In this document: positions 3,018-59,079 of the stretch, in pieces
Layout of the letters: each line of letters starts with the position of its first letter
Position numbering within the stretch: the stretch's first letter is position 1
NCBI RefSeq assembly: GCF_000340215.1
Contig: NW_006921540.1
Location: forward strand, 3,983,402-4,047,401
Direction of reading: 5' to 3'
Origin: Pseudocercospora fijiensis CIRAD86
Lineage: Eukaryota > Ascomycota > Dothideomycetes > Mycosphaerellales > Mycosphaerellaceae
DNA: 64,000 bases
Notes under the pieces: model-generated
Database searches by the model: none
The model's input: only the letters and a program-made list of their open reading frames with translations
Told to the model about the DNA's origin: nothing
Translations under genes and position numbers: made by a program

Positions 3018-3022
3018 CTATC
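3018..3022. repeat. Target-site duplication of outer Gypsy (left)
   Basis: CTATC directly precedes the left LTR and is repeated exactly after the right LTR at 21,980-21,984. A 5-bp duplication is normal for Gypsy integrases. Removing one copy and the element restores the hAT frame. Confidence 0.85.
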
Positions 3023-3198
3023 TATTAAGATATTAATTAAATAGCTATCTAAATTAATAACGAGTTAAAGAAGAAAGAGAGAGAGGCTCTCTCGCGGGAG
3101 AGGCTTTTATCTACTCGGCGGATGCCTTAGGCATTAAGTTATATAACCTTTAGTTACGTAACCTCGAATTGTATATACAAGACGCTAAGATCGTAATA
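3023..3198 (-). repeat. Outer Gypsy LTR (3' LTR)
   Basis: This 176-bp copy is nearly identical to 21,804-21,979. Differences are mainly C/T or G/A changes at CpA/TpG sites, for example a terminal TAATA here against TAACA in the other copy. Confidence 0.9.
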
Positions 3199-3299
3199 GC
3201 ACTCCCTCTTTTCGTAGGCGACGTCTACGGCGCTTTATCTACTCGTTACTTATATAGTATTACGATTATAGCGACTAATAATAGTACGCTCGGTCGTAT

Positions 3300-6200
3300 T
3301 AATATCGCTAAGTTAATAATACGTAGTTACGGCTTACGCGGGTAGCGCTTATAATAGTCCTTTACTACTTCTTACGTATTAGTAGCGTTCTCGGCGGCTT
3401 CCTATATCGGTTTATTATATCTAATCTATTTTACTTTATACTATATATTATCTCCTTTGCCTTTTATATCTAGTATTCTTTCTACCTCCTACTCCTTATT
3501 ACCGTCGATAACTAGCGGCGGCGGTAGCTCGTATCGTTAACTAGGTATACCTATTTTAGGTACTAGTATAAGTAACGAAGTATAGAAGACGTTATAGATA
3601 TATATTAAATTAGGTAGCTTTAGTTAATACGCGTAGGGCGATATTACCTTAGTAATCTTATATAGTCCTAAGTTCTTAACGTCGAGTTTAATATTAGGTC
3701 GATCCGTACTTATACCTTTAAGCGATAGAAAGACTTTATTACTAATACGATAGGTAGGAGTAGGTCGGCGGTATTAGTTAGTCGAGTCTTCTATACGAGA
3801 CTACTAATACCGTATCTATTCGATAAGATATATTTCGAGGCTCTATAGGTAATCGATCTAGACTTAAGTATTATTATCTAATAGTAAATCTTCTTCTAGT
3901 AGGGTTAAAGGTTTACTTCTAAGACGAGGATTGTAACTATAGCTAGCTTAAAACAGTAATAATCCGGTAGTTTCGAAGGGTACGTTATTTATTACGAATT
4001 CGGCGATAGGGAGCTAGAGGCTCTAGTCGTCTTACTCGTAGTTTATATATAATCGGAGATATCTTTCGATAACTTTATTTAAGCGTTTAGTTTATTTATT
4101 AGTCTATAGATAACGAGCGGTCGATAGGTTACGCTTAATACGTAGGCGCTTATATAAGTAGTTCTAGAATTTAGAAATAAACTATATACTACGGTCGGAA
4201 GTAATAGTATTTAGAAGACTATAAAGCTTCTAAATATAGGTAAGGTAGGTATCTACTACTATTTAAGCGTTCGAGCGTCCTTCCTTATATATAAATAGAA
4301 TAAGGTATTATATCTTAGTTAGTCGATCGACGACGATAAAAATCGAGTTATAACTAGAACTATTAGAAAGACTAGTAATAAAGTCTATTATTACGCTTTT
4401 CTATCGAGTAGTCGATATAGATAGAGGCCGAAGAAGTCCTTATTTAGCTTATCTTAAGGATTTAGTCTAGAGGTAGGTATAGTAGGTACTAATATATCGT
4501 TCGACGTTCTTATATATTTATAGCTAGTAGTAGCTATAGCTAATAAGATAGAACGTCTTTATAATACTAGGATAGCTAGTAGTAAAATAGTCGTAGTATA
4601 TATAGATAATATTAGTATAGAGCGACTTATCCGTTTCCTTAGCTTCTAGTATATAAAGATAGTCGTAGTAGAATAGGAAGTTATTATTTTTAATCTTATA
4701 GTTTAAGGGAGATAATAGGAGATTATTAAAAGAGTCCGCTTTACTACGAAGATATCCTTTTACTTACTAAAAGAGAGTATCCTTAATCGAAGTATCGCGA
4801 ATTCGCTTAGTAATATTCTCGGCGTCGATAAAGGTCTCGGCGCTAAGAGTTTCTATAGTAAATATAACCGTACTATTACTCGTAGTATTAATACAGGCTT
4901 TCGTAAATTAAGGTTCGTCGTAACCCTTACCCTAACCCTAACCCTAAGGGTTATCGTCGTAAAAAACGTAAAAGTCGTAAAATTGTCTGTTTCTTCGAGA
5001 ATTGCAATTATTTACCTTAGGGTTACGTAACTCTAACCCTAACCCTAACCCTAACCCTAAGGAGAAGATTTTATATACGGCGGATTAGAGGCCTATAGCT
5101 AGGTTATATAGCTTTAATACGAGCTAATAGTTGTATTTAATATATAGGTTCTTAGCTAATAAAGGTAGGTCGGTAGAGCGGTATATAAGCGAGTTCGGCT
5201 TAGCTCCTTATCTACTAAGATAGTATATAATCTCGAAATTAAACCTACTAAGGAATTTACTCTAGCGAGCTTAGCGGCGATTAAGTTACTTAGTAGATAT
5301 ATAGAACTATAGATTGCGGTAATCGGTAATAACTCGGATAGGCTCCTCGTTAGAGTAGTAACTCTCTAATTCGGATCTCTATAATTTAAAGGCTTTAATA
5401 ATAGCGAGAAGCTCTTTATCGTAGATCTCGTAGTTATATTTAGTAGGCGTTATCTTCTTCGAGAAGTAAGTAACGGGTTTCTATACGCTATCGGTATATA
5501 GTTAAGATATAATACCGGTAGTAATATAATTAGAAGTATTAGTCTCGATTATTACGGATAGGTCTAGGTTATAATAAGCTAATACCGGTATAGAGATAAA
5601 TATAGCTTTAAGTCGTTCGAAGGAGTCTTAGTAGGCTATCGTCTATATAAAGGGCGTATCTTTATATATTAGTAGGACTATAGGCTTAATAATATATACG
5701 AAGTCGCGGATAAAGCGTTAATAGAAGTTTATAAAGCTAAAGAAGGACTATATATCTTTAATATTAGTAGGAATAGGCTAGTCGCGTACGGCTTCGATCT
5801 TCTTATCGTCTATATAGATACTATCGGTACTAATAACGAGGCCTAGGTACTTAACTATTATTACTTTAAACTCTAACTTTAATATATCGGCTTATAGGCC
5901 GGCTTTAAGGAGTGCGTCTATTACTTAGCGAACGTAATAGCGATATTCTTCGATTAAATTAGAGTAGATAAGTATATTATCTAGATATATAGTATAGAAT
6001 ACGTCGAGGAAGGGTTAGAGAGCGTTATTAATATATTACTTAAAGGTTAATAGCGCGTTATAAAGCCCGAATAGTATAACCTTATATTCGAAGAGACTAT
6101 AATAGGTACGGAAGGCTATTTTCTACTCGTAGCCTAGTTCGATACGAAGTTAATTAAAGGCCGAGATAATATCGAGTTTAGTATATATAACTACTTTACT

Positions 6201-7118
6201 TAATCGATTAAGTATCTCTTAAATAAGAGGGATAGGGTATCTATTCTTTACTATAATCTCGTTTAGCTTACGATAGTCTATATAGAACCGTAAACCTCTA
6301 CCGGATTTCTTAATAAATAGTACTAGCGAAGAGTACTATAAGGTTAATACTTAAATAAAGCCCTTATCGAGGTTGTCTTTTAAATAGTTATATAGGACCT
6401 CTAATTCCTCGTACGATATACTATAGAGCGGGCTATACGTCGTTTCCTTACCTTTAATAATATCGATACGGTAGTTCTATCTAGGTCGGTATAGTAGTAA
6501 CTTCTTCGTATCCTCCTACGAGAATAATATTAGCCTACCGTAATAGTACTAAGGGACTTTATCGGCCGGGTTAATATACTTCTTCTTAGCTATTTCTTTT
6601 TCTATATCCCGTAACGACGCAGCGAATACGAATAACTCCTTCTTCTTTATTTACTAGTCGAAGACCTATACGCTTACTAGAGCTATAGTTATACCGGTAA
6701 TATAGATAAGCAGTAGTAATAAGCGTTTCCGTACTAGTCGAGGTAGCGGAATTAGCGGAGGTAAGGGCGGAGATAAGAACTAAGTTAATACCGATCGGCG
6801 CGTAGGACAATCGCGCTATAAGTAGTACTTTCGTATCGAGTCGATAAGCTTTACTATATCGGTATCGTCCGATAGGTTATAAGCTAGTTATTATTAATAG
6901 TACTACGTTACTATAGGTTCGGCGTAAGCTAGTATATTATTATCTTCGCGGTCGGATAAGCCGTAGGCGCGAACGATAGTATACGAGTTATTATAATATT
7001 CCTTATAGTAATCGGAGTTAAACTGTACTCGGTTAAGCTTCTAGTCGATACGAGGGTTATATTTATTAAGCTACGGACGGCCGAGGATAATAGGATAATA
7101 TCCTAATATAGTAAGGTA
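3300..7118 (-). pseudogene. Outer Gypsy pol relic (protease end, RT, RNase H, integrase)
   Basis: Minus-strand reading gives, in order: the end of a retropepsin domain (GYYPIILGRP then LNKYNPRID, about 7,105-7,030); RT motif [20 protein letters not shown] (about 6,300-6,240); the RT active-site box as YLDNIL (about 5,990-5,973), where the second Asp of YLDD has become Asn; RNase H (about 5,600-5,090); and an integrase core ending in a block like FIVVDRLTKIQYY (about 4,330). Stops fall where Gln or Trp codons are expected. The Asp-to-Asn change is G to A after T, as RIP predicts. The linker between RNase H and integrase contains two in-frame telomere-like tracts. Confidence 0.85.
4921..5061. 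repeat. Two telomere-like CCCTAA tracts
   Basis: Tracts of about four CCCTAA units each lie at roughly 4,921-4,949 and 5,030-5,061, separated by about 80 bp. All have the C-rich strand on plus. They fall in the outer Gypsy linker between RNase H and integrase, and the minus-strand pol frame can be read through both, as Leu-Gly repeats in one and stop-Gly (former Gln-Gly) repeats in the other. They may be interstitial telomere repeats or RIP products of TCAGGG repeats. Confidence 0.8.
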
Positions 7119-7124
7119 GTAAAG

Positions 7125-7398
7125 GACGGAAACTAATACTACTACTACTACTTATAGTAATAGTATAGGCTACCGAGGGTAATATAACCTATAGCAATAT
7201 AGGCAGCTATATTTAGCAAGATAGGATAACGAGACTATCGCTTAGGCTAATAACTAGAGCCCTATAATATAGGCATTATAGAAGTGTAATATAAACAATA
7301 TACTATACGAGGTTAATAATCTATCTACTCTATAGAAGGAGGCCTCTTGTATAGGCTTAAAACTAGCCTATAGGTATAGGGCCGGTTACTAGCTAATA
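7125..7398 (-). repeat. Inner Gypsy LTR (3' LTR)
   Basis: About 274 bp and nearly identical to 19,115-19,388. The shared block runs from GACGGAAACTAATAC to GGTTACTAGCTAATA. The outer base of the boundary is uncertain by 1-2 bp. Confidence 0.85.
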
Positions 7399-7507
7399 TC
7401 CCTCCCTTTCTTCGTATCTAACTAGACACGCTTTATATTACGCGCTTAAAACAAACATATATGCATCCTTAGCGCTCTTAGCTAAGGCTATCTTTAGAAC
7501 CCCGTAA

Positions 7508-7530
7508 TAATACCCCTAGGGCAGTATTAA
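7508..7530. repeat. Recurring palindrome, copy 1
   Basis: AATACCCCTAGGGCAGTATT is a near-perfect inverted repeat. It is the first of five copies within the inner Gypsy, placed just beyond the end of the extra frame. Confidence 0.7.
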
Positions 7531-7589
7531 TCCTAGATACTGTAATTATATAAAAACAACTTCCTAAGCAATACTATATAGACTTACTG

Positions 7590-10370
7590 TTGCTTTAACG
7601 CGCCGTAATCCTTACTAGTAATAACCTTATCTACTAGTCGGCTTTCGAAATCTCCTCCGTATACGTTAAAGCTATTAGTACCGAAGTACTATCCCTTATA
7701 GAGAGCTTAATTAACGAGGAGGTTAGTAGCCTTTTCCTTCGTAGTATTCTCCTAATTATATAGATATTCCTTAAGTCCCTCGCTATCGAGCTAGAGGATC
7801 TATTTAACTTCGTTCTAAACAACGTAACTTAACTAAGGAATCCTACTAACTAGGGCGTCGGAGATATAGCCGAGGCCTTCGACTAAGATAGCCGTAGGGA
7901 AAGCGAATAGTACGAAGGAGCTAGAGGCTAGGAGGGCGGTTAGATTGCGGTGCGCTTTAGCAACCTAAGAGACTATTAAGTTCTTATAGCCCTCAACCTT
8001 AGTGCCGTTAATAATACGAGAGTAGCCTAGGTTAATTAATATACGGTTACTCTTAGTCTTTAGATTACTATATAGTAGGTATAGTATCTAGGTAGAGACC
8101 TCGTACTCCTTTAGAGGGTTAAGGATCTACTCCGCTTTGCGCCCCTTACTATTAGGCTAACTATCGAATATATAGTCGAGGTCGTCGTCGGTAAGGTACT
8201 TGTTAGTAAGCTTACCGATCTTACTTAGTAGGACTAGGCTACGAGCCTTAAGCTTCTTAACCTAGCCCGTAAAAACCTCGGGCTAACACACACCTTCGAT
8301 AATAGTAGAGTAGCTAGTCTTATCCTTAGACATAAGGCAGACCTTAATGCGTAGGCAACTAGTACCCTTGCTAGCTACGAGCTTAACTATATCTTATCCG
8401 AGACAAGCAGACTCCTTAGAAGGACAGTTTTTACAAGTACCGCTAACCTTAAAGAACTTAGTAGGCCTAGGGACGGAGATAAGCTTATATACGTAATTAG
8501 GTCGAAGGGCGATAGCTAAGAGCTATAGGGTAGGGTACTAGCGGACGATTTAGTTGCTTATACTATAAGTTTAAAGGGCATTACGGCCTTCTTGCTTAGA
8601 CTTAGGCATTATACGTATATACTAAAGGTACATTTTAAACTCCTTCTATATTAGATCGATAAGAAAGGGAAGATATACTCTACGAGGCTCTTATAACTAA
8701 CTAAAGACTTAAGGGAAGATAGTATTACTAGTCTAGCGAAAGCGGTCGAAGGAGGTGCCTTAGCTAAGGATACCGGTAACGAACTTGCTCTAGCGATCCG
8801 TTAGCGTAAGAGCGCGAGTAATAGTACTAGTAGGGTTAAACGCGTAGAGTCCTAGAGATATTAGGGCGGCAATAGGGCGTCTAGGAAACTAGTTAGTATA
8901 GGCCTAATTAGCCTTAAGGGCAGCGAAGGCATCTTAATTAGCGACATTACGTCTAATCTTTAATAGGCGGCTAATAAGGATACTCGTCTTAGCACTAGTA
9001 TAAAGACTATACGCCTTAGCGGCCTTCTTAATATAGCTAGCATATATAGTAAACGGATCTTCGCCTAGCTTGCTAAGGTCGTCGTACTACTAATAGATAG
9101 ATAGGGCGATAGATGCTTTGCCTATATCGGCCTTATAAACTATATCGATCTCGGTAATAAGATATACGATAGAGTTACCCTTATAGGAACTATAGATGTT
9201 CTTAGTTAATAGCATCGGCGAGAGGCCTCTATACCTACGCTTACTAAAGGAACCTTCGGAAGAAATACTATCTTCTAGTAGCGCATTTAGTATATTAATA
9301 TCCGAGTTACTATAGTTAGTACTAGAAGGTATAGTAGACTTCTTAGCGGCCTTCTAGAATGCCTAGCGAGCCTATAACGCCTTCTAACGCGCTGCTTCTA
9401 CCTTAGCGCGCTTATCTTAAACTTCTTAAGGGACCTTACGGTTACGGGTTAAGCGGCGATCTTATACCTATATCTCTATAGCGAGCGCTAGACTAGTAGC
9501 TATATCGGCTTCCGTCTTAAGGCGAAGGACCTTGCGTTCGAGAATATCTATAATAGGAGCCTCTTAACCCTTAATAATAAAGCCTATACTATTAATACGA
9601 TAGCCCTTCTCTTTTAGTAGATCTTTAGTAGACTAGGCGTTAAGATCTACCTCGGTAATAGCGTCCTTATACCGCTTCTAGTAGGCTATCGTAAAGTCGT
9701 TAAGTACGAAGGTTAAGTTAACTAATTGCTTACCGTACTTCTTACTAGTAGTAGAGACTCGATAGATTATAGTGCGGGAAAGGTACTTTACTTCCTTACG
9801 ACGGACCGGATGCTTGTTAACGAACGACGCAACCTGCTTAGTACGCTCTTGTCTATCGTAGGCGAAGTTAATAAGGCTCTTTAGGAGACTACTCGGACCT
9901 CCCTACTACTTAAAGGCTTAATTGAGGTTCGTAAAGCGTATACGAATCGTAGTGCCTGCTATCTCGAGGCTATAGACGATAGGAAAGGCTTAATAAAGCT
10001 CTATATCCTAAAGAACGTCTCGCTTAAAGATGCGCTCGCTAATATCCTAGCGTAAGTTATTTATACCGTACGATACTAAGATAGTAGCCTTCTTAATGTT
10101 TCGATCGATAACGCGTAGTAAAGTACGAGCGGTCTTAATCTTCTTTTAGGGGTCGTCGATAGCAGTAACGATCTAGAAACAGTGCTCGAGGCTAGTTATA
10201 GCGACTAAGGCGCTATCGGAGGGGGCTTCGATTAGGACTAGTACGCCTAGGTTTAGGGCTTGTAGGTTGTTACTACTACTAGCGCCTAGCGGATTTAGGG
10301 CGCCGGAAGATATCTTAGTCGACTAGAGCGGAAAGGAGTTAGTAACGAGCTTGCAAAAACGTTCGTAGCT
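7590..10370 (-). pseudogene. Extra ORF (~900 codons) of inner Gypsy, unknown function
   Basis: On the minus strand one frame stays open for about 2.8 kb if TAG/TAA are read as former Gln/Trp codons. It is on the same strand as gag-pol, downstream of integrase and upstream of the 3' LTR. The decoded protein is mixed alpha/beta, rich in Lys, Arg and Ser. It has a charged helical middle (about 9,330-9,560) and a small Cys cluster around 8,460-8,400 (CKNCPSKESAC) that could bind zinc. I see no RT, protease, integrase, envelope-type membrane segment or helicase motif. It may be a captured gene or an element-specific accessory protein. I do not recognise the family. Confidence 0.6.
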
Positions 10371-10404
10371 TGTTAATAATAATTAAAGGGTTTAGATAGA
10401 AGAA

Positions 10405-10422
10405 GGGGGGGGGGGGGGGGGG
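10405..10422 (+). repeat. Poly-G run of 18
   Basis: Eighteen consecutive G on the plus strand lie just upstream of the extra frame's 5' end, between it and pol. Such runs are prone to sequencing and assembly length errors. Confidence 0.9.
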
Positions 10423-10745
10423 TAGGCGGTAGTAAGTTAGTTAGTATTTAAGTAGAAGAAAGAGCTTAGAAAGCTCGCCTTAAATAGGGTACGAAGGTAG
10501 CGTAGTCCGTATATTCCGGTAAAGCAAACGGATAACGATTATATATAGACCCTAAAAAGTAAAGCTATATACGAGACTCCTTTGTTAGTAGGGTAGGCTA
10601 AAGTTTAATAATCGATCTAGCTAATTGCTAGTAGCGACTACGCGCCTTTATTAACCTCTAGCTTTCGTAGATTCTCGCGCACTCGAAATGTAACTAGCTA
10701 GTTCGAGCACCTAGTAGTAATCTATAGTAGTAAGGCTAGCGGGAC

Positions 10746-11206
10746 TAATAATACCCCTAGGGTAGTATTAGCTTTTCTCTAGAGATACTCGGTAACTAGG
10801 AGCAAATCGCCTAGGCCTAGCGTAGCTTATATTAGCCTATAGCACTATCGTTATAGATATAGCATTACCTTTTATAGTAGTAAGCATATAAACGTAGCCC
10901 GTACGTTCTTCTTTCTTCTAGATACTAAGCTTAGCGGCCTAAGGTCCCTATTCTTAGAGGCTATAGGCCTAGGTTGCTACGTCTATCTAAGAGCTAGGAA
11001 GGGAGAGGGATCCTCCCTTTCTTAGTATCCTACGTAACTAATACTAATTAGGGTAGGAACAATCTTCTCTAGCGGAGTATCTTGTTATCGTTGCTACCTA
11101 AAGGCGGTTGCTAGAGACTAGGAAACTAGAGGGAAGTAGTCCTAGAAGGGCGGGAGGTTAGGTTCGGCTAGCTTCCGAATACTATCCCCGGGGTATTATT
11201 CGGAAG
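10746..11206. repeat. Recurring palindrome copies 2 and 3, bounding a 460-bp spacer
   Basis: One copy (10,746-10,770) and a longer 33-bp near-perfect palindrome (11,174-11,206, centre CCCCGGGG, arms TTCCGAATA and TATTCGGAA) bound the spacer between integrase and the extra frame. No gene is visible in the spacer. Confidence 0.65.
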
Positions 11207-11599
11207 TCATTCCTCGTATAGTTCTTTCTAAGGAAAAACAAAAAGAGTAAAGCTATAGCAATATTAATCGAAGGCAAAAGACAAAAGAGTAAAACAATAG
11301 ACAAGGTAAAGCAAAGGAGGGCAATAACTAAGAGTATTAACATCTATAGGAACAGGTAGTAAGGACTAAAGCTAAAGGGCAGCGCTCTATATTAATAGCG
11401 CGGAGAATAGTTAATAGAGGCAAGGAAAGCAACGTAGTAGAGGCAGGAAAGGATACACGATTATTTAGTCTCGGGGTCGTCTAGCTATAATTCTAGGCGG
11501 TCTTTATCGCTAGACTAGTTAGGTTCCTCTCCGTTAGAGTTAGATAGCTAGAAGTCTAGTTTACTATTAGAATCGGAATTAATATCGGAAACGCTCTAT

Positions 11600-14500
11600 A
11601 TATAGTTAATCCGTATATAACCCTCCCTTTGTTTTTAAGTTATTCCTAATAGCTTACTAAGACGAATCTAGGGATAGGTATAGTCCTTAGGTAGAACAGG
11701 ATCTATAATAGCGGTAGGATCCTCCTCCCGATAGGCATCTAAGGACGGTAGAGGGTCTATAGAGGCACTAACCTCCTCCTCGGTCGGCGGAGGGTAGGTA
11801 GGTTCTCGTAACTTAACGATCTTCTTTAGATTAGCCCGAGGGTAAGTATGCTTTAAGGTAGCACTATCTAGCTCCTAAAGAAGGTATACGGAACCCGAGT
11901 AAAGGACCTCCTTTACTCTATAAGGACCCTTCTACTTAAAGGCTAGCTTATAGAAGTAACTATACTCTAGTTCGGACCGGTATAGAAGGACTATATCGCT
12001 AACCTTTAGAGGTTCCTAATTAACAGTATTATAGTTATTAAAATACTGCTTAGCCTTTTCCCGCAGCCGACGCTATCGAGTAAGACCCTCTTAAGAAGTC
12101 GTAGTTATATCCTTAAGAGCCTTAGCTCGTAGGGCTAGAAGATCTACCCTAGTACGAATAGACCCCTAATCGTAAACGCCGTACGTACGATAGGACAATT
12201 TAATAGGAAGAACGGCGTCCCTCCTAATTATAAGCTCCGCTAGTATAAGTCTAGTCGTATCGATAATAGTAGTTCGGTCCGCCTAGAGAAGGGCTAGGAC
12301 GCGGGTAGAGATAGGAACTAACCTATCGCTACTATTAGTTATCTTAGATAGGGCATTAATTAACGACCGATAGCCGCGCTTAATAATAGCATTCGACTAG
12401 GGATAGTACGGGGAGATACGAACGTTCTTCGCCCTATACGAAATAAGTAGCGCTTAAACCTCCTTAGCTATATTGTTCGTAGCGTTGTCTAAGATAACCT
12501 CGTAAGGTACTCCCTAGCGGCAAAACAGATCCTTAAATAGGAAGGTAGCTATATTATAGGTATTAATAGCACCGCAACCCTTATAGAAATAATAGGCCTC
12601 CGGCTATCGAGAAAGACTCTCTCGAATAATATATAGGCTATTATTACGGCTAAGATAGACTCTATCGCTATACTACCGCTCCCTAACTAACTAGGTAGTA
12701 GGGATACGTAGCTCTCCTAGACGTCGGTAGCTATTCCTAAAGTTGCACTTAGGATAGCTCTTATAGTAGCGGGAGACATTAGCCTATACGCCGTCCTACT
12801 AGTAGCGTCGACGAAGGATATCGAAGGTGCCTACCGCCGCCCGGTAACCGAGCTTATCGTAAATAGAACGAAGGATTTCTTATCGGGCTACCGGATCGTT
12901 AATAACACGCTAGAGCGGTATATTAACTATAGCCTATCGCTAAAGGATGCGATCCTTAATAAGGAACCTCTAAGAATAGCGAATAATACGACGGTATTAA
13001 CTCTTTAATAGACCGGGAGCTCTCTTCGTATAGGTAAGGAAGTAGGCGATATTATAGGAGTCGTCGGAGTAGACTCTATTAAGGATATTATCCCTACCTA
13101 GTTCGCCCGCCTTAGTATTATCCTAGTCCTCGCCGTTAGTAGTAGGGTCTTCGTTAGGTTAGTTACTAGGTTAGTCGTCGGTAGTAGACCTAGTAATTAC
13201 CGGTATAGCGTTAATATAGAAGGCAGTAAAGAAGGTACGGTTAATAACCGCGTCGATATCCTCTTCTTCTATTATCTCGGCGATGTCCTCTTCTATAGTA
13301 GGCCTTCTAGAAAGGCTATCCGGTCTAGTATGCTTCTTGCTAGGAATATAGAAGACGTCGAAATTAAACAAATAGATCTAGGCAACCTACCGAGCTATTA
13401 TAGAGTTAGGTAGGTCGGAGGCTATACGGTTAAGTTAATAGACTAGCGTCTAAGCGTCGACTTCTAGGCGAAAGAATACTCTAAACAGCTAAGGACGGAA
13501 CTTCTTAAGAGCTTTATAGACACTAAGGCACTCCCGCTTGCCTATATCGTATCGGGCCTCGATTAGTTTCTATAGACCGGACTCGTACCGGATAGGGTAA
13601 CGTAAGGAGGGCTCCTTACGATTATACTATATTAGTGTCTCGCCGTAGCCTTCCCCGCTCGAGTCGATAGCAATAATTAGTAGACCTACGCCTTCCGAGT
13701 AGTTAATAGAGGTAAGCGTAGGCGCGCTAATAAGTGCCTTAGTAACCTTGTTCTTAGCGGCTTAGTAAACGGAGATCTATTTAAACTCTATATCCTTCTT
13801 AAGCAAGGCGTATAGAGGCTTATATACTAACGTAAAGTTTTCGACCTAGATACGGAAGTAGGAGACTACTCTAAGCTAGATCCGGATATCTTTCTAATAG
13901 GTAGGGTCGGGCTAGGATACAATCTTTAGGACCCGTATATTGTTAGGATAGCGGCCGTTCTCGTTAGTAACAAACCCGACAATGTTTATACGCTTATATA
14001 GGAGCTAAAGCTTTTCCCTATATACTATTAAGTTAGCCCGCTCTAAGTCGTAGAGGATACTATCGAGGTTCTAGATATATTTAAGAAAGAACCTCTAAAT
14101 ACTAGGCTCTACTTCTTCGTTATTATACCTAGTTTTAGGCCCTTTAATGCCGATATCGTCGAGGAAAGGCATCGTAGCATAAGGAATACAAGCCGCGAGG
14201 ACCCAGTTTATAACACGTACGAACTAGGCTACTAAGTTAGTCGCCCCTTAGGGAAGAGTAGTTTGTCGGTATAGTCTAAGAGGCGTTTCGAAACTAGTTA
14301 GGTCTCTACTATTAGGGTAGAGAGGTATCTAGTCGTAGCCCGAGAACATATTAACTAGCGAGGCTACTATACAATTAGCAAAGGCTTCCGAGAACCTATT
14401 AGTCTCCGGGGGAAGGTTAGTATCTCTAATCGTAACCGTATTAAACTTTTAGGTAGCGTTAATTAGCCGGTACTTCTTTAGTTCCCTAGGAGCTGTCTTC

Positions 14501-16000
14501 TTCTAAACTAGGAAGTATAGATTGCGATACGAGGCATAGGAAGGCTCTAAGGTGCTAGCCTTTACGCGCTGCCGTATTATATCCTTAACTATACCTCTTA
14601 GGCTTAGGTTTAGCTTGAACCCTAGGTAAGCCTAAGACTTATACTCGATCGTTCGGATCCTCTATAGAGGAGCAACCTCTAGGTTAATCCTGCCTAGATA
14701 CGTAAAGTTATATACTAATACGGCTTTACGGTTATATAGAAGCTCGTATAGCAAATCTAGTTTAAGAGCCGAAAGCTCGATACTAGGTTTAATATTCGCT
14801 AGTCTCTCCGGCGTTAGCCTCGATCCCCTAGGAATAGCGGAGAACTTTTTAGTAATATACCTCTAGTAGTATAGACTATCCCTAGGTATTAATATCGCTT
14901 CGCGGTTAAGGTACTTTTGTCGCTAGTTAGGATTTCCGCTAGGATTAGACCTATCGGTTATATATACGCTACCCTTTACGGGCTTAATCTTGTTAGCTAC
15001 CCTCTTATATAGGGTATATATACTAACCGCTCGTAATACCCGAGCCCTCTCTCTTTAACGTTAGGCCCGGAGATTAGCGTAATAGAACAGCGCGTAAACT
15101 TTATCGGAAGTCTCCTTAAGTCGGTAGGTATATAGCTAGTAGTCCTAATTTATAATTCCGGCGAAAACGTTAGATTCCTAATAATACCCCCGGGGTAGTA
15201 TTCGATCGGCGCTCTAATTAGTTAGTTCGGATTCGGGCTCGGGTAGATCCGCTTCCGGCGGCGATGCCTACGATAGCATTATTACCGAGATTCGTATACT
15301 AGGTAGTTGTTATACTATTATACTCGCTATCGCTTCGAGTATTCGTCTCCTTAGTATAGAGCCTAGAAACTAGCCTTATCGTACGGAGCGGCGTACCTCT
15401 AGATATAACCTATTTAAGCTATATTAACTTATAGCGCAGATTGCCGGTCTTATAACCGCGCTATAGCGTTTCCCGAAGAGCGTTTAGAAGTAGTAAGGAT
15501 ATCCTCGTAGGATTTATAGCTAGTGTTTCCGATATAACTAGTAAATACGACTCGGTTGCCCTTCTAGTTAGCGATAGTTCCTTCCTAGGAGCTATCGTCG
15601 CAGTTGCGCTAGATACCCCGGGTTATACGAGACTATAGACGACCTAGAATAATTAGCGTATTCGGGTTAGCGGCAATCTAGAAGGTAAAGGAAAAGTATA
15701 TACCGAAAGCGTCTACTATAACATTATAGCAGGTACCTACTAGCGTAACCTCCCTATTTACTCCCTATATACTAAGGGAAATATCTCTATTTATTAGCAG
15801 TCGGAGCTGTTTAGCCTAGCGCTTACTTATAATAAGTGACTCTAAACTATTATTAAGCATTACTAGCAACTGCTAACTATAGCTTCCGATAGTAACTTAA
15901 ATATAGATAGCGGGAACGACGGTAAAGGAACGGGTAACTGCGGAAAGGTCTATATTATTAGGGATAGAGTAAAGTTCCTTAGGTTAAGGAGGTCCTACTC
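11600..16000 (-). pseudogene. Inner Gypsy pol relic (protease, RT, RNase H, integrase)
   Basis: Minus-strand decoding gives a retropepsin-like region (about 15,930-15,600, with TLIILGRLQS), RT with MPFLDDIGIKGPK (about 14,170-14,130), followed by LDSILYDLERANL, then RNase H ending in FYIPSKKHTRPDSLSRRP (about 13,350-13,295). Next is an integrase core with GVPYEVILDNATNNIAKE and SPYYPQSNAIIKRGYRSL (about 12,520-12,330). The catalytic Glu of the family motif ERGHR is Lys here and His is Tyr, both RIP-type changes. Each domain matches the chromoviral/Gypsy order. An in-frame palindrome at 15,181 sits between protease and RT. Confidence 0.85.
15181..15203. repeat. Recurring palindrome, copy 4
   Basis: AATACCCCCGGGGTAGTATT lies within the pol frame between protease and RT, where it is translated. 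Confidence 0.7.
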
Positions 16001-16899
16001 GACCGATTTGTTAGCTAGTAAATCGGACAGCCTTAATAGAAACTAAAACTAAAGCAGGGTCGGTATTATTATTATCCCCTCGGCCTATCTCCTTAATCCC
16101 TTCTTCGTTAGCATTATCGATAGTCTCCTAGCTCTCGTAGGTTACTAATTCGCCTTCTACTAACTCCTAGGCCCCTAAAAATTTAGGAAGGAACTATAGG
16201 GAAGAGACGTCGATATAGTCCTCTCGCCCCTATTTACGTTAGAGGGCTATAAGGTCTTTTATAAAGGTAGCATCGTTAGGAATCCGGCTCTAGAACAGGT
16301 TAGTAGGCAAACCGTATACTAGAAGCTCTCCTATAGACACGTTAGACTTAAGGTCTAGGAACTATAAAGCCTAGAAGAGAGTATTTGCCTTTATATCGTA
16401 AGAGTTAGTAGGCCCGGTACTATACTTCTTTATATACCTATTAAAGCGAAAGCTCTTTAGGTCGGCTAACTTTCGTTTATAGGCCGGCGGGTTAGCTAGG
16501 CCTAGGGTACTACTAAGGTCGGTAGTAGCATCCTCTATATCGATATCTAGAGTTTCTAGTACCTCTAGAGTAGCTATACTAGCTCGGGTTGTACGGTCTT
16601 TAGCTGTCTAGAGTGTCTTAGTCTTAGCGACTAATTCTCGCTATTTCTTAGCCTTATTAGCTACCTGCTTCTTAAGTATCCTAGTAGGGGCTGCCGTACT
16701 AGGGCGGGTAGGGTTCTACGGGCTCTTACCCTTGCCCTAGGACTAGGTTTAGGACGACTAAGTTTAGGACCTTATAGCAGCGTAGACATCTATACTGTTC
16801 TTAGTAACCGCGTAAACATTAGTAACTGCGTCCGGGTCCTAAGACATAAAGTTAACTTTAATAGGCTTAGTAGTACCGTTACTACTCCGCTCCTTAACC

Positions 16900-18300
16900 T
16901 GTTTTGCCCTAATCTTCTAAGTTTCTCGTTTAGCAATAGCGGCGAGAGTACTATTCCTAGTATCCTTAAACTCGATCTTGCTACTATACTTCTTCTCTAG
17001 AAGACTTCTAAGTTAAGGCAGCTTCGGGGCTCTACGGTCCTACTCGAAGTTAATCTTGTCGCCGGTATTAGTATAGTAGAACCGACTATTTACTTATATA
17101 ACGAGCTTCCTTTTAAGAAGCTCTTTCTAGATAGGGCAGTCTAATTAAATATGTTTAAAACCGCCGTATATCTAGCACTTGCTATCTAAGTTAGAATAGA
17201 TCTTCCGTATAGTATAGACGTTAACTAAAGGGGCCTTAAGGTAGTTAGGATCGGAAATCTAGTAGACCGGTAGTATATCCTTTAGTATACTAGTATTAAT
17301 GACCTCCCTAACTCGCTATAGTGCTTTCGCATTAAGGTTGAGCTAAGCTAGGGATTTAGCTAAGTCCGTAACGTCCTAAGAGTACTTAGTAATAGTAGGA
17401 GTTACGGTCTTAGGACCGCTCTACGACTTAGGAAGGAACTTAGGTCCTCTACTTCCCGAGGCATCGCTTTTTACCTAAGCTAGGTTATTCTAGTCCTCGC
17501 TATAAATAAACTTCTTCGTATCGGCGGAGCTATTAATATCGTCCTTAATAGCCTCTAGGACCTCTTTGTACTTCCTAAAGGTCTCGGGATTAGCTTCGCT
17601 AAGCTTATAGCGACGGAAGATACGCTTAGCCGTAGACTATAGTAACCCTTTAAGGAGTAGCCTCGTTCTCTAAGAATTCTCGAGGTCCTACTAGTTAATG
17701 CCGTCCGCTAACTTAACAAACTCGCGGACGTACTCCTTTAGGTCGTTATCTTCGGTACGCCTCTCTATATAGAGGTTCTTAAGCTACGTATAACTACCTT
17801 TAATATAACGGCTATCGCGATCCCGATACTCCCTTATAAAGGCCTACTTAAAGACCTCCTAGTCGGTATTAGACTTGTCGTCCTTTTCTAGGTAGCTAAC
17901 TAGGGTTCTAAGAGTTCGGTAAAGCTTAGTAATAGTAGTCCTCGTAAGGGACTAGACCTTGTACTAGTCCGACTCTTCTTCGAGTCCGTACTCGGTTAAA
18001 TTATCCTTAAAGCGTTCTACGTGCGCCGTAGCGTTCTACCCTTCGAATAAAGGGTTCCTACTACTTCCTAGCTCTAGCGGGCGACGCCTATTCTAACGAA
18101 GAAGGTTAGTTTGCCCTTAAATTATCTTTATAACGATATTATAGAGAGCCTCGGGCGTAGAAGGCTCGATAGCCCCTAGGTCGACGGCGCTTATAACAAC
18201 TAGTCGTCGCCTAATTTCTTCGTTAATAGGGTCCGGTAGATTATTAGATTCCGAAGATTCCGCTAATTTGTAATACTCGCTTTCGCTAGAGCTTATTCGA
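16900..18300 (-). pseudogene. Inner Gypsy gag relic
   Basis: The minus-strand frame contains a decayed CCHC zinc knuckle near 17,195-17,150. It reads C-x2-Y-x4-H-x4-C, where Tyr replaces the second Cys (TGT/TGC to TAT/TAC, a RIP change). The upstream sequence, rich in charged helical residues, fits a capsid domain. It lies between the 5' LTR and protease. Many stops abolish function. Confidence 0.7.
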
Positions 18301-18411
18301 TTGTTATAAAGTAGTTAAAATAAAATGCTATAGGAAAGTGTTTTTAGTATATATTATAGGTTTGTTTCGATATTGCTATACGAGAAAATAGTGTACTAGG
18401 CTATTTTCTTC

Positions 18412-18436
18412 TAATGTTACCCCTAGGGTAGTATTA
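18412..18436. repeat. Recurring palindrome, copy 5
   Basis: GTTACCCCTAGGGTAGTATT is on the 5' side of gag. A further partial copy (TACCCCTAGGAG) follows about 40 bp later. Confidence 0.65.
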
Positions 18437-19114
18437 GAGTTTAGCCTCCTAGGGGTCGCCTAGATACCCCTAGGAGCTTTAATTTAGTAAATTTAGACAA
18501 AAAGCCGCTCGGAGGAAGGAACTGCAATCTCTATTTATACCTAGATCCTAGAAACTAGCTACTTTACTAACTATCGTTATCTCCTTTAGCTAGGCGGGGG
18601 GCGGGGACCTTCTTTTTCTAGTAGAAGGCTAAGCACTATCCGAACGAGGCAGCGAATCCCGAAACAATCTACCCGGTTAATAGGGGAACTGTCTAGGCAT
18701 CCGACCTATAATCTAGAAATTGCTATCGTATAGATAGTCTTAGCAAACTAAGTAAGGCCGATAGGTAATTAATCTATCTTCTCCTTAGGCGGGCGGTAGC
18801 TTATCTCGAGTAAGCGGTGCTAAATAGGTCTTCGACCCGGAGCCGAGTCCTTAGAAGCTAGCTATAGTTATAGACTAGGCCCTAAGCTATAACAGTCCTA
18901 AGGGTTTGTAGCTTTTCGAGGTTAAAGCGATGCTCTCGTTAAGAGGTTTCTCTACTTGTCGTAACGGCCCCTTAAGATACTTCGGTATCGTCCGTATCGT
19001 AGGCTCTTATCGTACCCTCGCTTCGGTTATAGCTATTCGTACCTAGAGACTACCTTTAATATACCTAAACCTGTTAGATATAAAGAGATAGCCCTACCTT
19101 CGGCTCTAATAAAC
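18437..19114 (-). other. Inner Gypsy 5' untranslated leader
   Basis: About 680 bp between the 5' LTR and gag, RIP-degraded, with no recognisable gene. A primer-binding site should lie next to 19,114, but I could not match a tRNA end with confidence. Confidence 0.4.
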
Positions 19115-19388
19115 GACGGAAACTAATACTACTACTACTACTTATAGCAATAGTATAGGCTACCGAGGGTAATATAACCTATAGCAATATAGGTAGCTAT
19201 ATTTAGCAAGATAGGATAACGAGACTATCGCTTAGGCTAATAACTAGAGCCCTATAATATAGGCATTATAGAAGTGTAATATAAACAATGTGCTATACGA
19301 GGTTAATAATCTATCTACTCTATAGAAGGAGGCCTCTTATATAGGCTTAAAACTAGCCTATAGGTGTAGGGCCGGTTACTAGCTAATA
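19115..19388 (-). repeat. Inner Gypsy LTR (5' LTR)
   Basis: Partner of 7,125-7,398, about 274 bp. On the minus strand it starts TATTAGCTAGTAACCGG. It is followed on plus by GTAGA, the imperfect partner of GTAAA at 7,119-7,123. Confidence 0.85.
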
Positions 19389-19390
19389 GT

Positions 19391-21700
19391 AGAAGGCCCT
19401 ATATTCGATATAGCTATTAATATTAATAGTCGCTCTAGTATACTAAGTAACGTCTACTACGAAACTACCGTCGAAAGCAGTTAATCTATATAGCTCCTTT
19501 AGGCTATAGATAGGAAGCTAGTATTAGTACGCGTAATATAAGTTAATAAAAGATAAACTAGTATAACCGCAATCGACTATTACTAATAATTAATATTCGG
19601 TATTCTACCCTACGTCTAATATACTAGACTAAGGTTTATTATAAGCCGTTAAAGTATAATATAAGACGAGATATTAATTATCGCCCTCGGGTATAATACT
19701 TCCTAATAATACTAATAAACTAATCTATAAATCTTTCTACTATCGATATTTCCTTCTATAATAGTAGCCTAGGTTCTTCGGTAATAACGGTATAGGTAAC
19801 TCTATCGGTATAGGCTCTTAAACGCGACTTTATCTAAGAGCTATACTTTTCCCTCCTTATCGCTACTATAAGCGTCTTTATTATTAGTAGAAAGTAGATC
19901 GACTAGAGCGGCGGCGGCGGTACTAAATACGGAGATATTAGTATTTAGGCGATTACTACGGCCTTAAGCGCGGCGGATAAGCTCTAGATAGATAGTATCG
20001 GAGTAGATATAATTACTACTATAGAAGCGATATAGTCTTTCGCGGCGGCGACGATCTCTCTCTTCGAGCGTTATACGGCGACGATTACCCTAACCCTAAC
20101 CCTAACCCTAACCCTAAGTAGCGGAGAGGTCTATAGCGTCTAGGTTACGGACAGTCGTAGTCGTAGTAGTAGTAGTACCGTTACTATTCGCCGAGGTAAA
20201 CTATCCTTAGTTGTTATATAGAACGGTATATCCTTATAAAGGGTATCTATTACTAGAGCCGCTAGCGTTATTACTATAGCTACGGCTAGTATTAGGGCCT
20301 TAGTTAGCGGTACTACTAGATCCTAGCTTAGTATTATTACGATTGCTTTCTATACGGTACTAACGGAGCTAGTTATTAATAATAGTTAGTCGGCGATAGA
20401 GTAACGAAAAGTTAGTAGGCTTATTATATATATTGCTAAGCGCTACCTTTAATTTAGAAGACAAGCTACGCTTAAGGGCGTTAACTTAAGCTCGGCCTTT
20501 ATAACTAAGTAAGGCGTTAAGTCGATTAAACTCTACGAGATAGTAAGCAAATTCCTTATTCTTCTACTTTAAGTTATCTATCTTATAGCTAGTAGTAGCG
20601 ACCTCGTTAGGATTACCGAAGGCGTTAACTAATAGGTTACGGAAGTCGTTAAGGTCGTTAAAGTCTATAATTACGCTATATTCGTCGTAACGGACGTATA
20701 GTTAGACTATAGAATAGGCCTTGCTAGTAGTACGACTATACGTATATATTAGTCGGTCCTATAGCGTTAGAAAGCGATTATTGTTAATTATTAACTTAAT
20801 CGTAAGCTTAGTAAGGAAGGGTTTTAGCTTTTTACGGTCTCTATCGTATTTCTCGGGATCTAGATACTTCTCGCTCTTACTATATCTAGTATAGTTATTA
20901 TTATCGTCGATACTATAGTTAAATCGAGAACGTCGGAGAGGCTTAGATTAGTCGCGAAAGGTAAAGGGGTCGAGAGGTCGACGGAATAGAGATCGGCTAT
21001 TATCTAATATAGGTCCTCGACCGATTAGATTATATAATAAAGACGCTTCGGCGTCGCGACGAGCGCAAGCGGCTTATTTACTAGCTCGTCGGGCGATATC
21101 TTCTATAGAAGACTATTATTATTATAGGCGAGCGACCTACTAAGCTAGGTTATTACGCTACTATTGCGTAATAACTAAGGAGTTACGTACTAAATCGGCA
21201 GCTCGACGTTAGTATTCTACTTTAGTCCGAGCCTATACTAGCTCGCTATTAAGATAAGTATTAGTCTTATAATAAGCTTATTATACCTATTCTAATGTCT
21301 TTGCCTCTTACTAGTATTACTAACGAAGTGTAGCTACTAACTAATATAGCTCGGTTATACGCTAGAAGATATATTTAGCGGCCTCCTACTCGTTTACCCT
21401 ATTAAAGAACTAATAGAAGTCTTAGAGGCTACTAGGTAGCGGCTATCGTAGTACGCTATCGATATCGGCGAGACTAGGTCGTAGACCTTACGGTAGTTAT
21501 AGTAGTTCTAGTGCACTATTTAACGGGGCCCTAGCTATTCCTATATAGTTAGGCGTATTCGTATATTCCGAGCCGCTACCGCGATCGGTAGGCGGTCTTA
21601 AAGAATCTATAGCGAATCGGCGGTATTACTATAGTCGGGTAGCTTACTATATCTAATATAGATTAGTATATAGGTCTATTAGCACTATCGTATAATAGGG
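19391..21700 (-). pseudogene. Outer Gypsy gag and N-terminal protease relic
   Basis: Minus-strand decoding gives a gag-like charged region and, next to the nested element, the start of a retropepsin-like domain (VDCGYTSLSFINLYY, about 19,560-19,515, then TAFDGSFVVDVTQYTRA). It ends in EYRAFY exactly at the inner element. The continuation YLTILGYYPIILGRP is found at 7,118 downward. The domain is thus cut in two by the insertion. A five-unit telomere-like tract at 20,089 is in frame with the gag part, as former Gln-Gly repeats. Confidence 0.75.
20089..20117. repeat. Telomere-like CCCTAA tract (five units)
   Basis: About five CCCTAA units with the C-rich strand on plus, inside outer Gypsy gag. 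The minus-strand frame reads repeated TAG-GGT, which would be Gln-Gly before RIP, followed by NRRR. Confidence 0.8.
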
Positions 21701-21803
21701 AGTATAGAAGGGCGATAGCGATCGCCGGCGGCGTAATTCCTTATATAGGCGTATGCGATAGCACCTACGACGTTATCGTAGGTAATAAAGGAACTCGTTA
21801 TTC

Positions 21804-21979
21804 TATTAAGATATTAATTAAATAGCTATCTAAATTAATAACGAGTTAAAGAAGAAAGAGAGAGAGGCTCTCTTACGGGAGAGGCTTTTATCTACTCGGC
21901 GGATACCTTAGGCATTAAGTTACATAACCTTTAGTTACATAACCTCGAATTGTATATACAAGTCGCTAAGATCGTAACA
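21804..21979 (-). repeat. Outer Gypsy LTR (5' LTR)
   Basis: 176-bp partner of 3,023-3,198. It ends TAACA and is followed by the duplicated CTATC at 21,980-21,984. Confidence 0.9.
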
Positions 21980-27021: not shown

Positions 27022-30000
27022 CATAGAAGTTGATTACTGAGTACTCACTAGTTAGCGGCTGTAATCATAATCATAGTCAATAATAAGTGAGTAATTAGTA
27101 ATCATAATCACGTAATCATATAATCAGTACCTATAGTAATGCTTAGGGTTAAGAACGAGGTGGATCTATAGGCGGTCGTTACTGTCGATAGCGCCTAAGA
27201 CTAAGTATAAGTCCGGCAATAGTCCTTCCTCTTCTACCTCTTCTAGCACGGCTAATTCTAATAGCACCTTAGCAACCCCTGTTCTTATCTAGTTCTTCGA
27301 GCACTCGTTTATACGAATATAGTTACTACTTATACGTATACGGTCCTATCGAGCAGTACGGCGGCTTATACTAAAGGTCCTCTCTAACTCGGCGGACATA
27401 GTAAAGGCTAATAATGTATTAATAGCTAGTTGCTATAACGCTACATCGTAGGTCTTCCGCTATTAAATCTACTAGTTAATAGGACTTATTATAACTAGCT
27501 TCTCGAGGCTAACTAGTAGCAGTGCTATTAGACTAGTATAAATAAAGGCTTCGAAGGGGTCCTAATTAGTAGCAACTAGGTTAGTTTGAGACTCAATTTG
27601 CTAGCGCTTAAGGTCCGATAGTCCTTTAAATAAGCGCTATAGCGTAGACAGTAGTTAATAGCTACGTCCGAAGCGTGTCTTATAGTCCTTCTAAAGCGCT
27701 ATAGACTACAACAAGGTAGTATCTATGTCTACCGCTAAGCGGCCTCTAAGCTAGGCAAGTCGTCGGCTTAGATATAGCAAGACTATAGTAACATATAGAG
27801 GGCTCTTCTAGTTAAGGTCGTAGTACTTGTCGAATAGTACTCTAGCTACATTAATAGACCTAATAAGGACCTTGCGGTAGGTGTTCTTACTAGCTAAGCG
27901 AAGGAAATAGCTTCTTAGGTATTCTATAGACTCTTAATATATATCGAATGTAATAGTATAGCCTTAGAGCCGAAGAGTAACCTCTTTAAATAGACTAAGA
28001 AACTTCCGTATATAGGCAAGGACCTTCTAGTCGTCGTCGGCTAAGCTAAACTCGCGTAGGTGCGGCATTCTATCGAAGAAGGTGTTTAAGATTAGCCTAG
28101 TTTGAATAGCCTCTTCTATTATTAGAAGCTAGCTATTCTAGCGTATTTTACCGGGGATCTTTAGCACTATATATAGCAGTTGTGGCTAGGCCTTACAGAC
28201 CTCTTAGAAGATGTTATTATTGTCGTTCTTACGTAGAAGCTTAGCGAGTGCGAATAACCGTTACAATAGACCTTGTTTAATAAAGGACTTAATATCTATA
28301 TCGAGCTACCTCGAGATTAAGACGCTATCGCTATCGTTGCTAAGCACTTAGTCAAAGTCCTTACTCTTAGTAGCCTCTACGTCCTTAGCAAACATAAAAG
28401 CTATAGTTACACGGTTAAGAATATAGCTAATATAGCGGAGGCGGCGGTTCTTCTAGGAGTAGCCTTACGAGTCTAGGAAGCGCTTAATAGCGGCACTAAG
28501 TGTATTGTTATTAGAGCCGCTATTAGTCGTTATCTAGCTAAGTTTGCTAGCTATCTCGAAGGTTGAGAAGCAAGGCAGGACACTCTTAGTAAGGAAGTCG
28601 CTAGTATAAGAGCTAGGTAGAAGTTGTAGCAAATCTAGTAGTATTTAGACTAGGCGGCCCTATAGGTTAATATACTAGCAATTAACGGCTTAGAAGAACT
28701 TATAGCTATACTAAGACTTCTATATATTAGTATAAAAGTAAATACAACTAAGCGCTGCTAATAGTGCTCGTTTAACCCCTTCTCGCTAGCTCTCGAAGTT
28801 ATATAGAATACGAGGAAATAGTAAAGTATAGCTCTTAAGAAGAACCTCCTCTATATATAGATTAACCGTTAGTATAAGGTCCTTGAATTCCTTCGTAACT
28901 AGCGCAGTATAAGCGATACTATTAGCTATTACAAAGCGAGCGAGGGCGTATCTAAACTTGTTCTTATCCGTAGCGCCTTTAAGTATATTCGTCGTCTTGT
29001 CCGACTTAATAGAGCCTTGCTTCTTCTATAGCGCCGAGAGGTTAATCTTCGTCTACTTCTTATAAGTACCTTTAAGCTTCCGTTTCTTAATGCCGACGAA
29101 TATAAAGTGCTTCTTAGCTAGGTACTAAGGCGCGTTACTAGAATTAGACGCGTATCGATTAGAGTCGTTATCGTCGTAGTATATATAGTAGAATGCCTTA
29201 TACCTACCTCTATCGACCTTTAAAGGCTCTCTATCTTTTAATGCTCTCGCATGCGCCTATAACGCTAGATCTAGCTAGTTCCTACCCCTTCTACGTTTCC
29301 TTAACTTAGTAACTGTAGGCGTAGGTATCGGCTATACTATATTCGAGGACTGCGAGGTAGATAGTCGAATAGAATTAGAAGATTAAAGGAACAAGGTGTC
29401 CTCGTCTAGTGTTAGAGATAGCGCTTTATTAGCTTTAGAGAATAGAAGATCGCTTAGATCGCTCGAATCTTTATAGAATAGTATCCGATCTAGCGGCTCG
29501 TTTTCCTATATCGATGCTTAGATATTTGCGTAATTTTCTAGTACTTTCTAAGTTAGTCTATGCTTCTTACGTAGGTTATCTCGTATATCGAATGTGTTGT
29601 TGTCTTAAACTAAACAATAAATATCGAGATTTGAGTTTGCTAGCGTACGGCTAAGCCGTCCGGACCTTGCCGTCCGTACTAAGCGAAGCTTATCTATTAG
29701 GCTTAGCTAGACCCTAAAGTGCTAATATAACGCGATAGGCAGGTACGATAGCAAGCTCGAATACTAATGTCTACGACTAATTATACCTAATTAATAACAA
29801 CAACCTTACTATCGCCGGTAGTACTATCGCTATCGATTAGATAGTATAGAACCCTATCGATCCGATCCTTAAACAGCGTCTACCGTATCGGATACTACGA
29901 TTTTAGCCCGAGAAAGCACTCTTCTAAGCAGAGGTATAGTTTTCTACTAAACTTAAAGTAGCGACGAGAACCTAGCGCTATATACCTTCCTTTCCGGTCG

Positions 30001-58745: not shown

Positions 58746-59079
58746 AACCCTTTTCTACGGTGTCTCTAATACTAAGGGCGCGGCTATACTCTATTGTTGT
58801 CTAGATACTAATAAGTATCGCTTTAGCGAATAAGCTATTGTTGTTTCGCTTAATAAGTCCCTTCCTATATACCTCGCGTACTATAGTTGGTAATAGAATG
58901 CGTTAATTGTTGCGTATTACGCGTAGCATATAGGCTATATAAAATGTGCTCCTAGGCGGCTAGCGCGTGCCTAGAGGAGTGCGAGCGAAGCTTTCGCCTT
59001 ATATATACTAAGCTAATTCGGTTCTTTAGACCTCGAAGCTAGACCTTGAAGCTATTACTATTATTATACGATTTAGTTC

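What the first reader, a model, noticed from the sequence alone, without database searches (positions are those of the whole stretch)
7590..10370. A large Gypsy element carrying an extra ~900-codon frame after pol
Once RIP stops are read as Gln/Trp, a 2.8-kb minus-strand frame appears between integrase and the 3' LTR, on the gag-pol strand. It holds no known retroelement domain and no envelope-like membrane segment, but has a small Cys cluster. It nearly accounts for the doubled element length. This could be an undescribed accessory protein of a fungal Gypsy lineage or a captured host gene.
Basis: partly seen in the sequence, partly recalled or inferred. Interest (0 to 1): 0.75.

Follow-up and report, generated by a model that had tools for sequence, protein, structure and literature searches.

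The report
Orphan third gene in fungal retrotransposon
A high-copy fungal retrotransposon, now heavily mutated, carries a third gene after its replication enzymes; the gene was kept by selection while the element was active but resembles no protein found, so its job in the element is an open question.

Summary
In this RIP-mutated DNA, reading TAA/TAG through leaves one frame open over all 12,272 nt on each strand, so openness proves nothing. Comparing copies does show a gene: in five subfamily comparisons the stated sense frame has the lowest replacement/silent transversion ratio of six frames (0.33-0.47) and the mildest replacements; in 35 other copies indels inside the gene are multiples of three, unlike the flanks. 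The gene (about 909 codons, pol sense) sits between pol and 3' LTR; 34 of 40 listed pol copies have it at the expected place, 6 unresolved. Pfam, NCBIfam, PDB sequences and 5.8 billion proteins gave no significant relative, while pol in the same damaged state found 92. Two structure models failed (pLDDT 27, 29). A 23-nt near-palindrome lies before gag, at the gag/pol junction, after pol, and before and after the extra gene; its pattern occurs 993 times genome-wide against 0 for the reversed control. Best reading: an orphan accessory gene of a Gypsy family, like other post-pol additional ORFs; its function is inferred only. New variant of a known kind.

The parts
7117..7398 (-). 3' LTR (282 nt aligned)
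   Evidence: direct repeat with 19107-19388, 97% identical; follows the frame in 38 of 39 fetched loci
19107..19388 (-). 5' LTR
15480..18300 (-). gag-pro region (limits approximate, read by eye)
   Evidence: gag homology at 18161-17586 to an ORF of L067, 25% identity, E 4.7e-10; the CCHC knuckle and protease were recognised by eye, not by a call
11662..15027 (-). pol (RT, RNase H, integrase)
   Evidence: Pfam RNase H matches above cut-off, RVT_1 and integrase zinc domain below cut-off; 92 protein relatives; extent
7587..10313 (-). extra gene (about 909 codons), same sense as gag-pol; broken by many RIP stops
   Evidence: codon-position and replacement/silent tests, in-frame indels, presence in copies
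10371..11390 (-). spacer between pol and the extra gene
   Evidence: indels of any length and no third-position excess
18413..18435 (-). box before gag (degenerate, 3 mismatches)
   Evidence: seen on the + strand
15180..15202 (-). box at the gag-pro/pol junction
11178..11200 (-). box after pol (opposite orientation)
   Evidence: kept in 34 of 39 fetched loci
10747..10769 (-). box before the extra gene
   Evidence: kept in 38 of 39 fetched loci
7506..7528 (-). box after the extra gene
   Evidence: kept in 38 of 39 fetched loci

Best explanation
SHOWN: the stretch is a true third gene of a high-copy Gypsy family (LTR, gag-pro, pol, extra gene, LTR), in the sense of gag-pol, under purifying selection while the family was active, and later broken by repeat-induced point mutation in every copy examined. 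INFERRED: it makes an accessory protein of about 909 residues for the element's own life cycle, most likely in the nucleus (export of the element's RNA, control of its expression, or delivery of its cDNA), rather than an envelope. Its expression may be set by the palindromic boxes at the gene borders, as was proposed for the palindromes before the third gene of plant Sireviruses. Split of confidence: a real resident gene 0.95; useful to the element rather than a passenger 0.8; a nuclear or regulatory role rather than envelope or enzyme 0.45.
For: Transversions by codon position 1/2/3 such as 26/13/41 and 33/30/65 in five comparisons with the window copy (p 1.5e-4 to 8e-3); lowest replacement/silent ratio of six frames in 5 of 5; indels in threes inside the gene in 35 other copies but not in the spacer or LTR side, with the integrase end as positive control and the spacer as negative control; 46 of 49 scored genome matches span residues 1-927; same order integrase-spacer-gene-LTR in the fetched loci; boxes kept on both sides of the gene. 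For the role: no enzyme or envelope family found; analogy with Cer1 CERV, plant and rotifer additional ORFs and Sirevirus palindromes.
Against: Ten comparisons that leave out the window copy have weaker bias (p 0.012 to 0.66), many with few changes; the five that include it share that copy. No domain, fold or homologue supports any particular function; basic composition (K+R 15.3%, D+E 8.7%) is unsafe because RIP can change acidic codons to lysine. The conserved hydrophobic stretch leaves a membrane role open. L049 has a frame-breaking indel and L047 a compensated pair.
Confidence: 0.5

Rival explanations
1. Captured host gene: the element took up a cellular gene once, early in the family, and the copies inherit it; the protein does its old host job or benefits the element only by chance.
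For: Host gene capture by LTR elements is known (passages of PMC7264820, and PMC6431247). The gene starts with its own Met and lies apart from pol.
Against: No relative in 5.8 billion proteins, although fungal records are in that collection. It has been selected through at least three subfamilies. A host relative in the own genome could not be looked for properly (score family copies only).
Confidence: 0.15
2. Envelope-like gene: a diverged fusion or membrane protein in the position of env.
For: Position and sense fit; one conserved hydrophobic stretch near residue 812.
Against: No envelope family in Pfam; a single stretch, near the C-terminus; no signal-peptide-like start was noticed, but no dedicated predictor was run.
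Confidence: 0.1
3. Antisense gene like brtn of Boty: the real gene lies on the opposite strand and the sense frame is its shadow.
For: A fungal precedent in this position is antisense (PMC7264820). Antisense frame 1 is second best in replacement/silent ratio (0.47-0.65).
Against: In 5 of 5 comparisons the sense frame is better, with milder replacements (mean BLOSUM62 -0.06 to 0.21 against -0.39 to -0.87) and codon position 2 the slowest.
Confidence: 0.04
4. Not a gene: an excused frame in RIPped filler DNA, or another element inserted in this one copy.
For: Openness after reading stops through is worthless here.
Against: Codon-position, replacement and indel tests; present in the other copies with the same borders.
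Confidence: 0.02

Closest known systems
Sense additional ORFs between pol and 3' LTR (aORF-3S) of plant LTR elements, e.g. Athila, Bagy2 (PMC7264820; passages read)
   Same: Position, sense, presence across the family, unknown or debated function
   Different: Those are plant elements and often called env-like; here the host is a fungus and no envelope family matched
brtn of Boty-like Gypsy elements of Botrytis cinerea (Zhao et al. 2011, not read; seen through passages of PMC7264820, PMC8365987 and PMC4227169)
   Same: Additional gene in a fungal Gypsy element, between pol and 3' LTR
   Different: brtn is antisense; this gene is sense. Its sequence was not compared
CERV of Cer1, C. elegans (PMC10309623; passages read)
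   Same: Orphan ORF between pol and 3' LTR of a Gypsy-type element, not envelope-like
   Different: CERV is made by splicing and is shown to be needed for RNA export; nothing of this was testable here, and no homology was tested
Palindromic repeated motifs (RM) of Sireviruses (PMC2829016; section 9 and passages read)
   Same: GC-cored palindromes in non-coding parts; in Sireviruses the linker copies occur only in elements with the third gene and lie mostly before it
   Different: Sireviruses are Ty1/copia elements of plants; there also abundant in LTRs, here one at each gene border
ORF3 of bdelloid rotifer LTR elements (PMC5408684; passages read)
   Same: Third ORFs that turned out not to be envelopes
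   Different: Several of those were recognised as enzymes by profile search; none was recognised here

Membership tests
Ty3/Gypsy LTR retrotransposon (the element) | two LTRs around RT-RNase H-integrase in that order | tested here: met
   LTRs; RT 1670-1805, RNase H 1877-1986, integrase zinc domain 2166-2219 in one frame, the first and last below Pfam cut-off; relatives carry the same domains
Ty3/Gypsy LTR retrotransposon (the element) | target-site duplication, PBS and PPT | tested here: inconclusive
   ends printed; a 4-nt match of flanks seen by eye; PBS and PPT not tested
[quoted passage not shown]
Sense additional ORF between pol and 3' LTR (aORF-3S) | in all or most copies of the family, conserved as protein | tested here: met
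   34 of 40 pol copies, 6 unresolved
Envelope-like third gene | signal peptide, transmembrane segment, envelope homology | tested here: inconclusive
   no envelope family; one hydrophobic stretch; signal peptide not tested
brtn-type antisense additional ORF | coding on the strand opposite to gag-pol | tested here: not met
   sense frame better in 5 of 5 comparisons
CERV-type RNA-export accessory protein | needed for export of unspliced element RNA | not testable with these tools
   no expression data; homology to CERV not tested
Captured host gene | a homologous gene outside retroelements | tested here: inconclusive
   no match; own-genome searches list only family copies

The most novel reading that the evidence does not exclude
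A new class of retroelement accessory protein with its own cis-acting site: the orphan third gene product acts on the palindromic box that lies at every gene border of the element (as DNA in promoters or as RNA between cistrons), giving a fungal Gypsy a self-encoded regulatory circuit like those of complex retroviruses.
Probability: 0.15. Interest if true: 0.75.

Novelty: new variant of a known kind. Interest (0 to 1): 0.45.

Why it matters
Additional genes after pol are well described in plants and animals; in fungi the case that I found in print (brtn) is antisense. A large, selected, orphan sense gene in a high-copy fungal Gypsy family, with palindromic boxes at each gene border, is a concrete candidate for how a fungal LTR element regulates itself. 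It also shows a trap: in RIP-saturated DNA nearly any frame looks open once stops are excused, so extra ORFs must be judged by substitution and indel patterns.

Tried and rejected
Openness of the frame as evidence: rejected. Single-copy insertion: rejected. A second gag or an internal duplication: a profile of the frame finds only itself in the window with significance, and nothing in L067, which holds a gag ORF. Structure: two AlphaFold jobs (full length, 15 rows; C-terminal half, 10 rows) gave mean pLDDT 26.9 and 29.4, so no fold search was run. Viral contigs: no relative of the frame or of pol. Prokaryote genome contigs: two pol relatives, L067 and L068; no frame relative in either. Rfam on 7000-19500 and a tRNA scan of the window: nothing. 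The bacterial promoter scan does not apply to a fungus and was not used. One search was meant as a sense query of a third subfamily but took the wrong strand; it serves only as an example that an antisense frame also looks open. Literature searches for an earlier description of this gene: (listings), with the papers named in the text; I saw no report of it. One search was a search for the boxes. Zhao et al. 2011 on brtn was not available and not read.

Full report
What is there. The window lies in a 73.94-Mb genome of 30 contigs. GC-rich gene islands alternate with AT-rich repeats that show strong repeat-induced point mutation (RIP): TpA/ApT 2.13 and (CpA+TpG)/(ApC+GpT) 0.21 in the element, against 0.48-0.68 and 1.20-1.37 in three gene-rich stretches. 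Genome size, largest contig (11.88 Mb) and RIP type fit Pseudocercospora fijiensis as described in PMC4981457 (about 74 Mb, largest scaffold 11.8 Mb, CA to TA bias; passages, section 8). This host name is inferred, not tested.

The element. Direct repeats of 282 nt, 97% identical, at 7117-7398 and 19107-19388 bound a 12.27-kb minus-strand element. Two RNase H models match above Pfam cut-off, RVT_1 and the integrase zinc domain below it, all in one frame. The pol stretch, read with X at stops, matches 92 proteins, the first rows at 36-38% identity over 96% of it. Pol homology runs from 15027 to 11662; gag homology is seen at 18161-17586 in another frame. The element is inserted in an older LTR element (repeats 3021-3196 and 21802-21977).

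Is the frame real? In the frame's own stretch four of six frames have similar numbers of stops, 51 to 64. So the test must come from comparing copies. Between the window copy and five copies of other subfamilies, transversions (which RIP does not make) fall most on third and least on second codon positions (p 1.5e-4 to 8e-3 against equal shares). Over all six frames, the stated sense frame has the lowest ratio of replacement to silent transversions in 5 of 5 comparisons (0.33-0.47) and the mildest replacements. These five share one copy and are not independent. The ten other pairs show weaker bias, p 0.012 to 0.66, many with few changes.

Indels give a second signal. In 35 other copies (26 of group A, 9 of group B) the indels between the start codon and the last 13 nt are +24, +12, +6 and -3 relative to the window; those of 1, 2 or 13 nt lie before the start codon or at the ends of the aligned stretch. 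In the spacer and on the LTR side indels have any length. Three group C copies, 80-82% identical over the frame, agree in the main: L048 has only multiples of three, L047 a compensated pair of 2 and 1, L049 one frame-breaking indel. The integrase end, as positive control, shows the third-position bias in 10 of 10 comparisons and no indels; the spacer, as negative control, shows no such excess in most.

Do the copies have it? With the frame as query, 49 matches were scored out of 537 candidates: 46 span residues 1-927, two begin at residue 5 and one covers 40-926. With a second subfamily as query, 49 were scored of 535 and all span at least residues 5-929 (the two lists overlap). From the pol side 40 copies are listed. 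In 23 the frame lies at or within 800 nt of the expected place. I probed the 17 others with 800 nt each: 11 hold frame sequence, 1 holds integrase sequence (a frame lies 2.8 kb further on), 5 match nothing of the element. So 34 of 40, with 6 unresolved; two of the six are pol matches that are themselves cut short. In 39 fetched loci (L010-L049 without the duplicate L037) the LTR follows the frame in 38, the spacer precedes it in 39 and the integrase end precedes it in 36. These loci were fetched because they hold the frame, so they test the order of parts, not its presence. All lists are capped; several hundred copies are suggested by the candidate counts only.

Its halves re-assort. In blocks of 60 codons the window copy differs from subfamily B copy L039 by 0-1 transversions over codons 540-840 but 8-18 over 60-360; L048 differs from L039 by 0-2 over 60-360 but 5-11 after 480; L047 and L048 differ by 47.7 per kb in the first half and 19.6 in the second. 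Template switching within the gene between subfamilies is the simplest reading (inference). The third position leads in the second half in 7 of 7 pairs and in the first half in 5 of 7, with one tie and one exception.

What does it encode? No Pfam match for the window copy, only a sub-threshold CARME hit in 2 of 15 members, no NCBIfam or PDB-sequence match, and nothing in 5.8 billion proteins by single sequence or 15-row profile (in each only the 7994 candidates sharing most words were scored). The pol control in the same state found 92, so such damaged sequence can find relatives; but pol is more conserved than accessory proteins usually are. Structure prediction failed twice. Composition as read is basic, K+R 15.3% and D+E 8.7%, but RIP can turn acidic codons into lysine. 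The Cys cluster is largely private to the window copy. One hydrophobic stretch is conserved in 13 of 15. Where the window copy has a stop, other copies show Gln most often (42 of 124 readable cells) but not mostly.

The boxes. A 23-nt near-palindrome with a CCCCGGGG-type core occurs five times in the element: before gag (3 mismatches, found on the other strand), at the gag-pro/pol junction, after pol, before the extra gene and after it. On the minus strand 4 were found, against a mean of 0.025 in 40 Markov shuffles; no other was found in the 64 kb at up to 4 mismatches. In the 39 fetched loci the box before the gene is kept in 38, the one after it in 38, the one after pol in 34, and none lies inside the frame. 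Genome-wide the exact pattern occurs 993 times, against 0 for the reversed control; only the first 100 places were listed, so I did not show that all lie in this family. I found the motif by eye first, so the shuffle figure overstates its significance; its conservation among copies does not depend on that, although copies are related. Whether it acts as DNA or RNA is unknown. Sirevirus elements have GC-cored palindromes before their third gene (PMC2829016, section 9).

How it most likely works. A selected, family-wide third gene without envelope or enzyme match fits an accessory role. The best analogue with experiments is CERV of Cer1, an orphan ORF after pol that is needed for export of unspliced RNA (PMC10309623, passages). 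That is analogy; homology was not tested.

Membership and novelty. It meets the tested features of sense additional ORFs of LTR elements (PMC7264820, passages), does not meet the antisense feature of brtn, and is inconclusive for envelope and for captured gene. New variant of a known kind. The odds on a real gene are high; those on any one function are low.

Noticed in passing
18413-18435, 15180-15202, 11178-11200, 10747-10769, 7506-7528: A 23-nt near-palindromic box at each gene border of the element, kept among copies and present 993 times in the genome.
   Followed up: yes
3021-7116 and 19389-21977: The 12.27-kb element sits inside an older LTR element (repeats 3021-3196 and 21802-21977, 97%) with an even lower RIP index, 0.05.
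   Followed up: partly
20087-20117 and 5028-5060: Short telomere-like arrays (ACCCTA x5.2, TAACCC x5.5) on either side of the inserted element, inside the older element.
   Followed up: no
7590-10370 (codons 60-540 of the frame): Subfamilies are mosaics: halves of the extra gene re-assort between them.
   Followed up: yes
432-2362 and 28065-29975: Four pairs of inverted arms, 74-76% complementary, flank the nested elements.
   Followed up: no
59001-60000: A kilobase of 18.5% GC with strong T bias, made of 12-nt tandem repeats.
   Followed up: no
L068:2522-14767: A contig filed as a Deltaproteobacteria MAG holds a decayed Gypsy element of about 12.2 kb with 297-nt LTRs and a related pol; its 3-kb stretch after pol shows no match to the extra gene. 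Presumably eukaryotic contamination.
   Followed up: partly
L067:1-5591: A contig filed as Beijerinckia mobilis encodes a 975-aa ORF and a pol ORF overlapping by 31 nt, related to this element; presumably eukaryotic contamination.
   Followed up: partly
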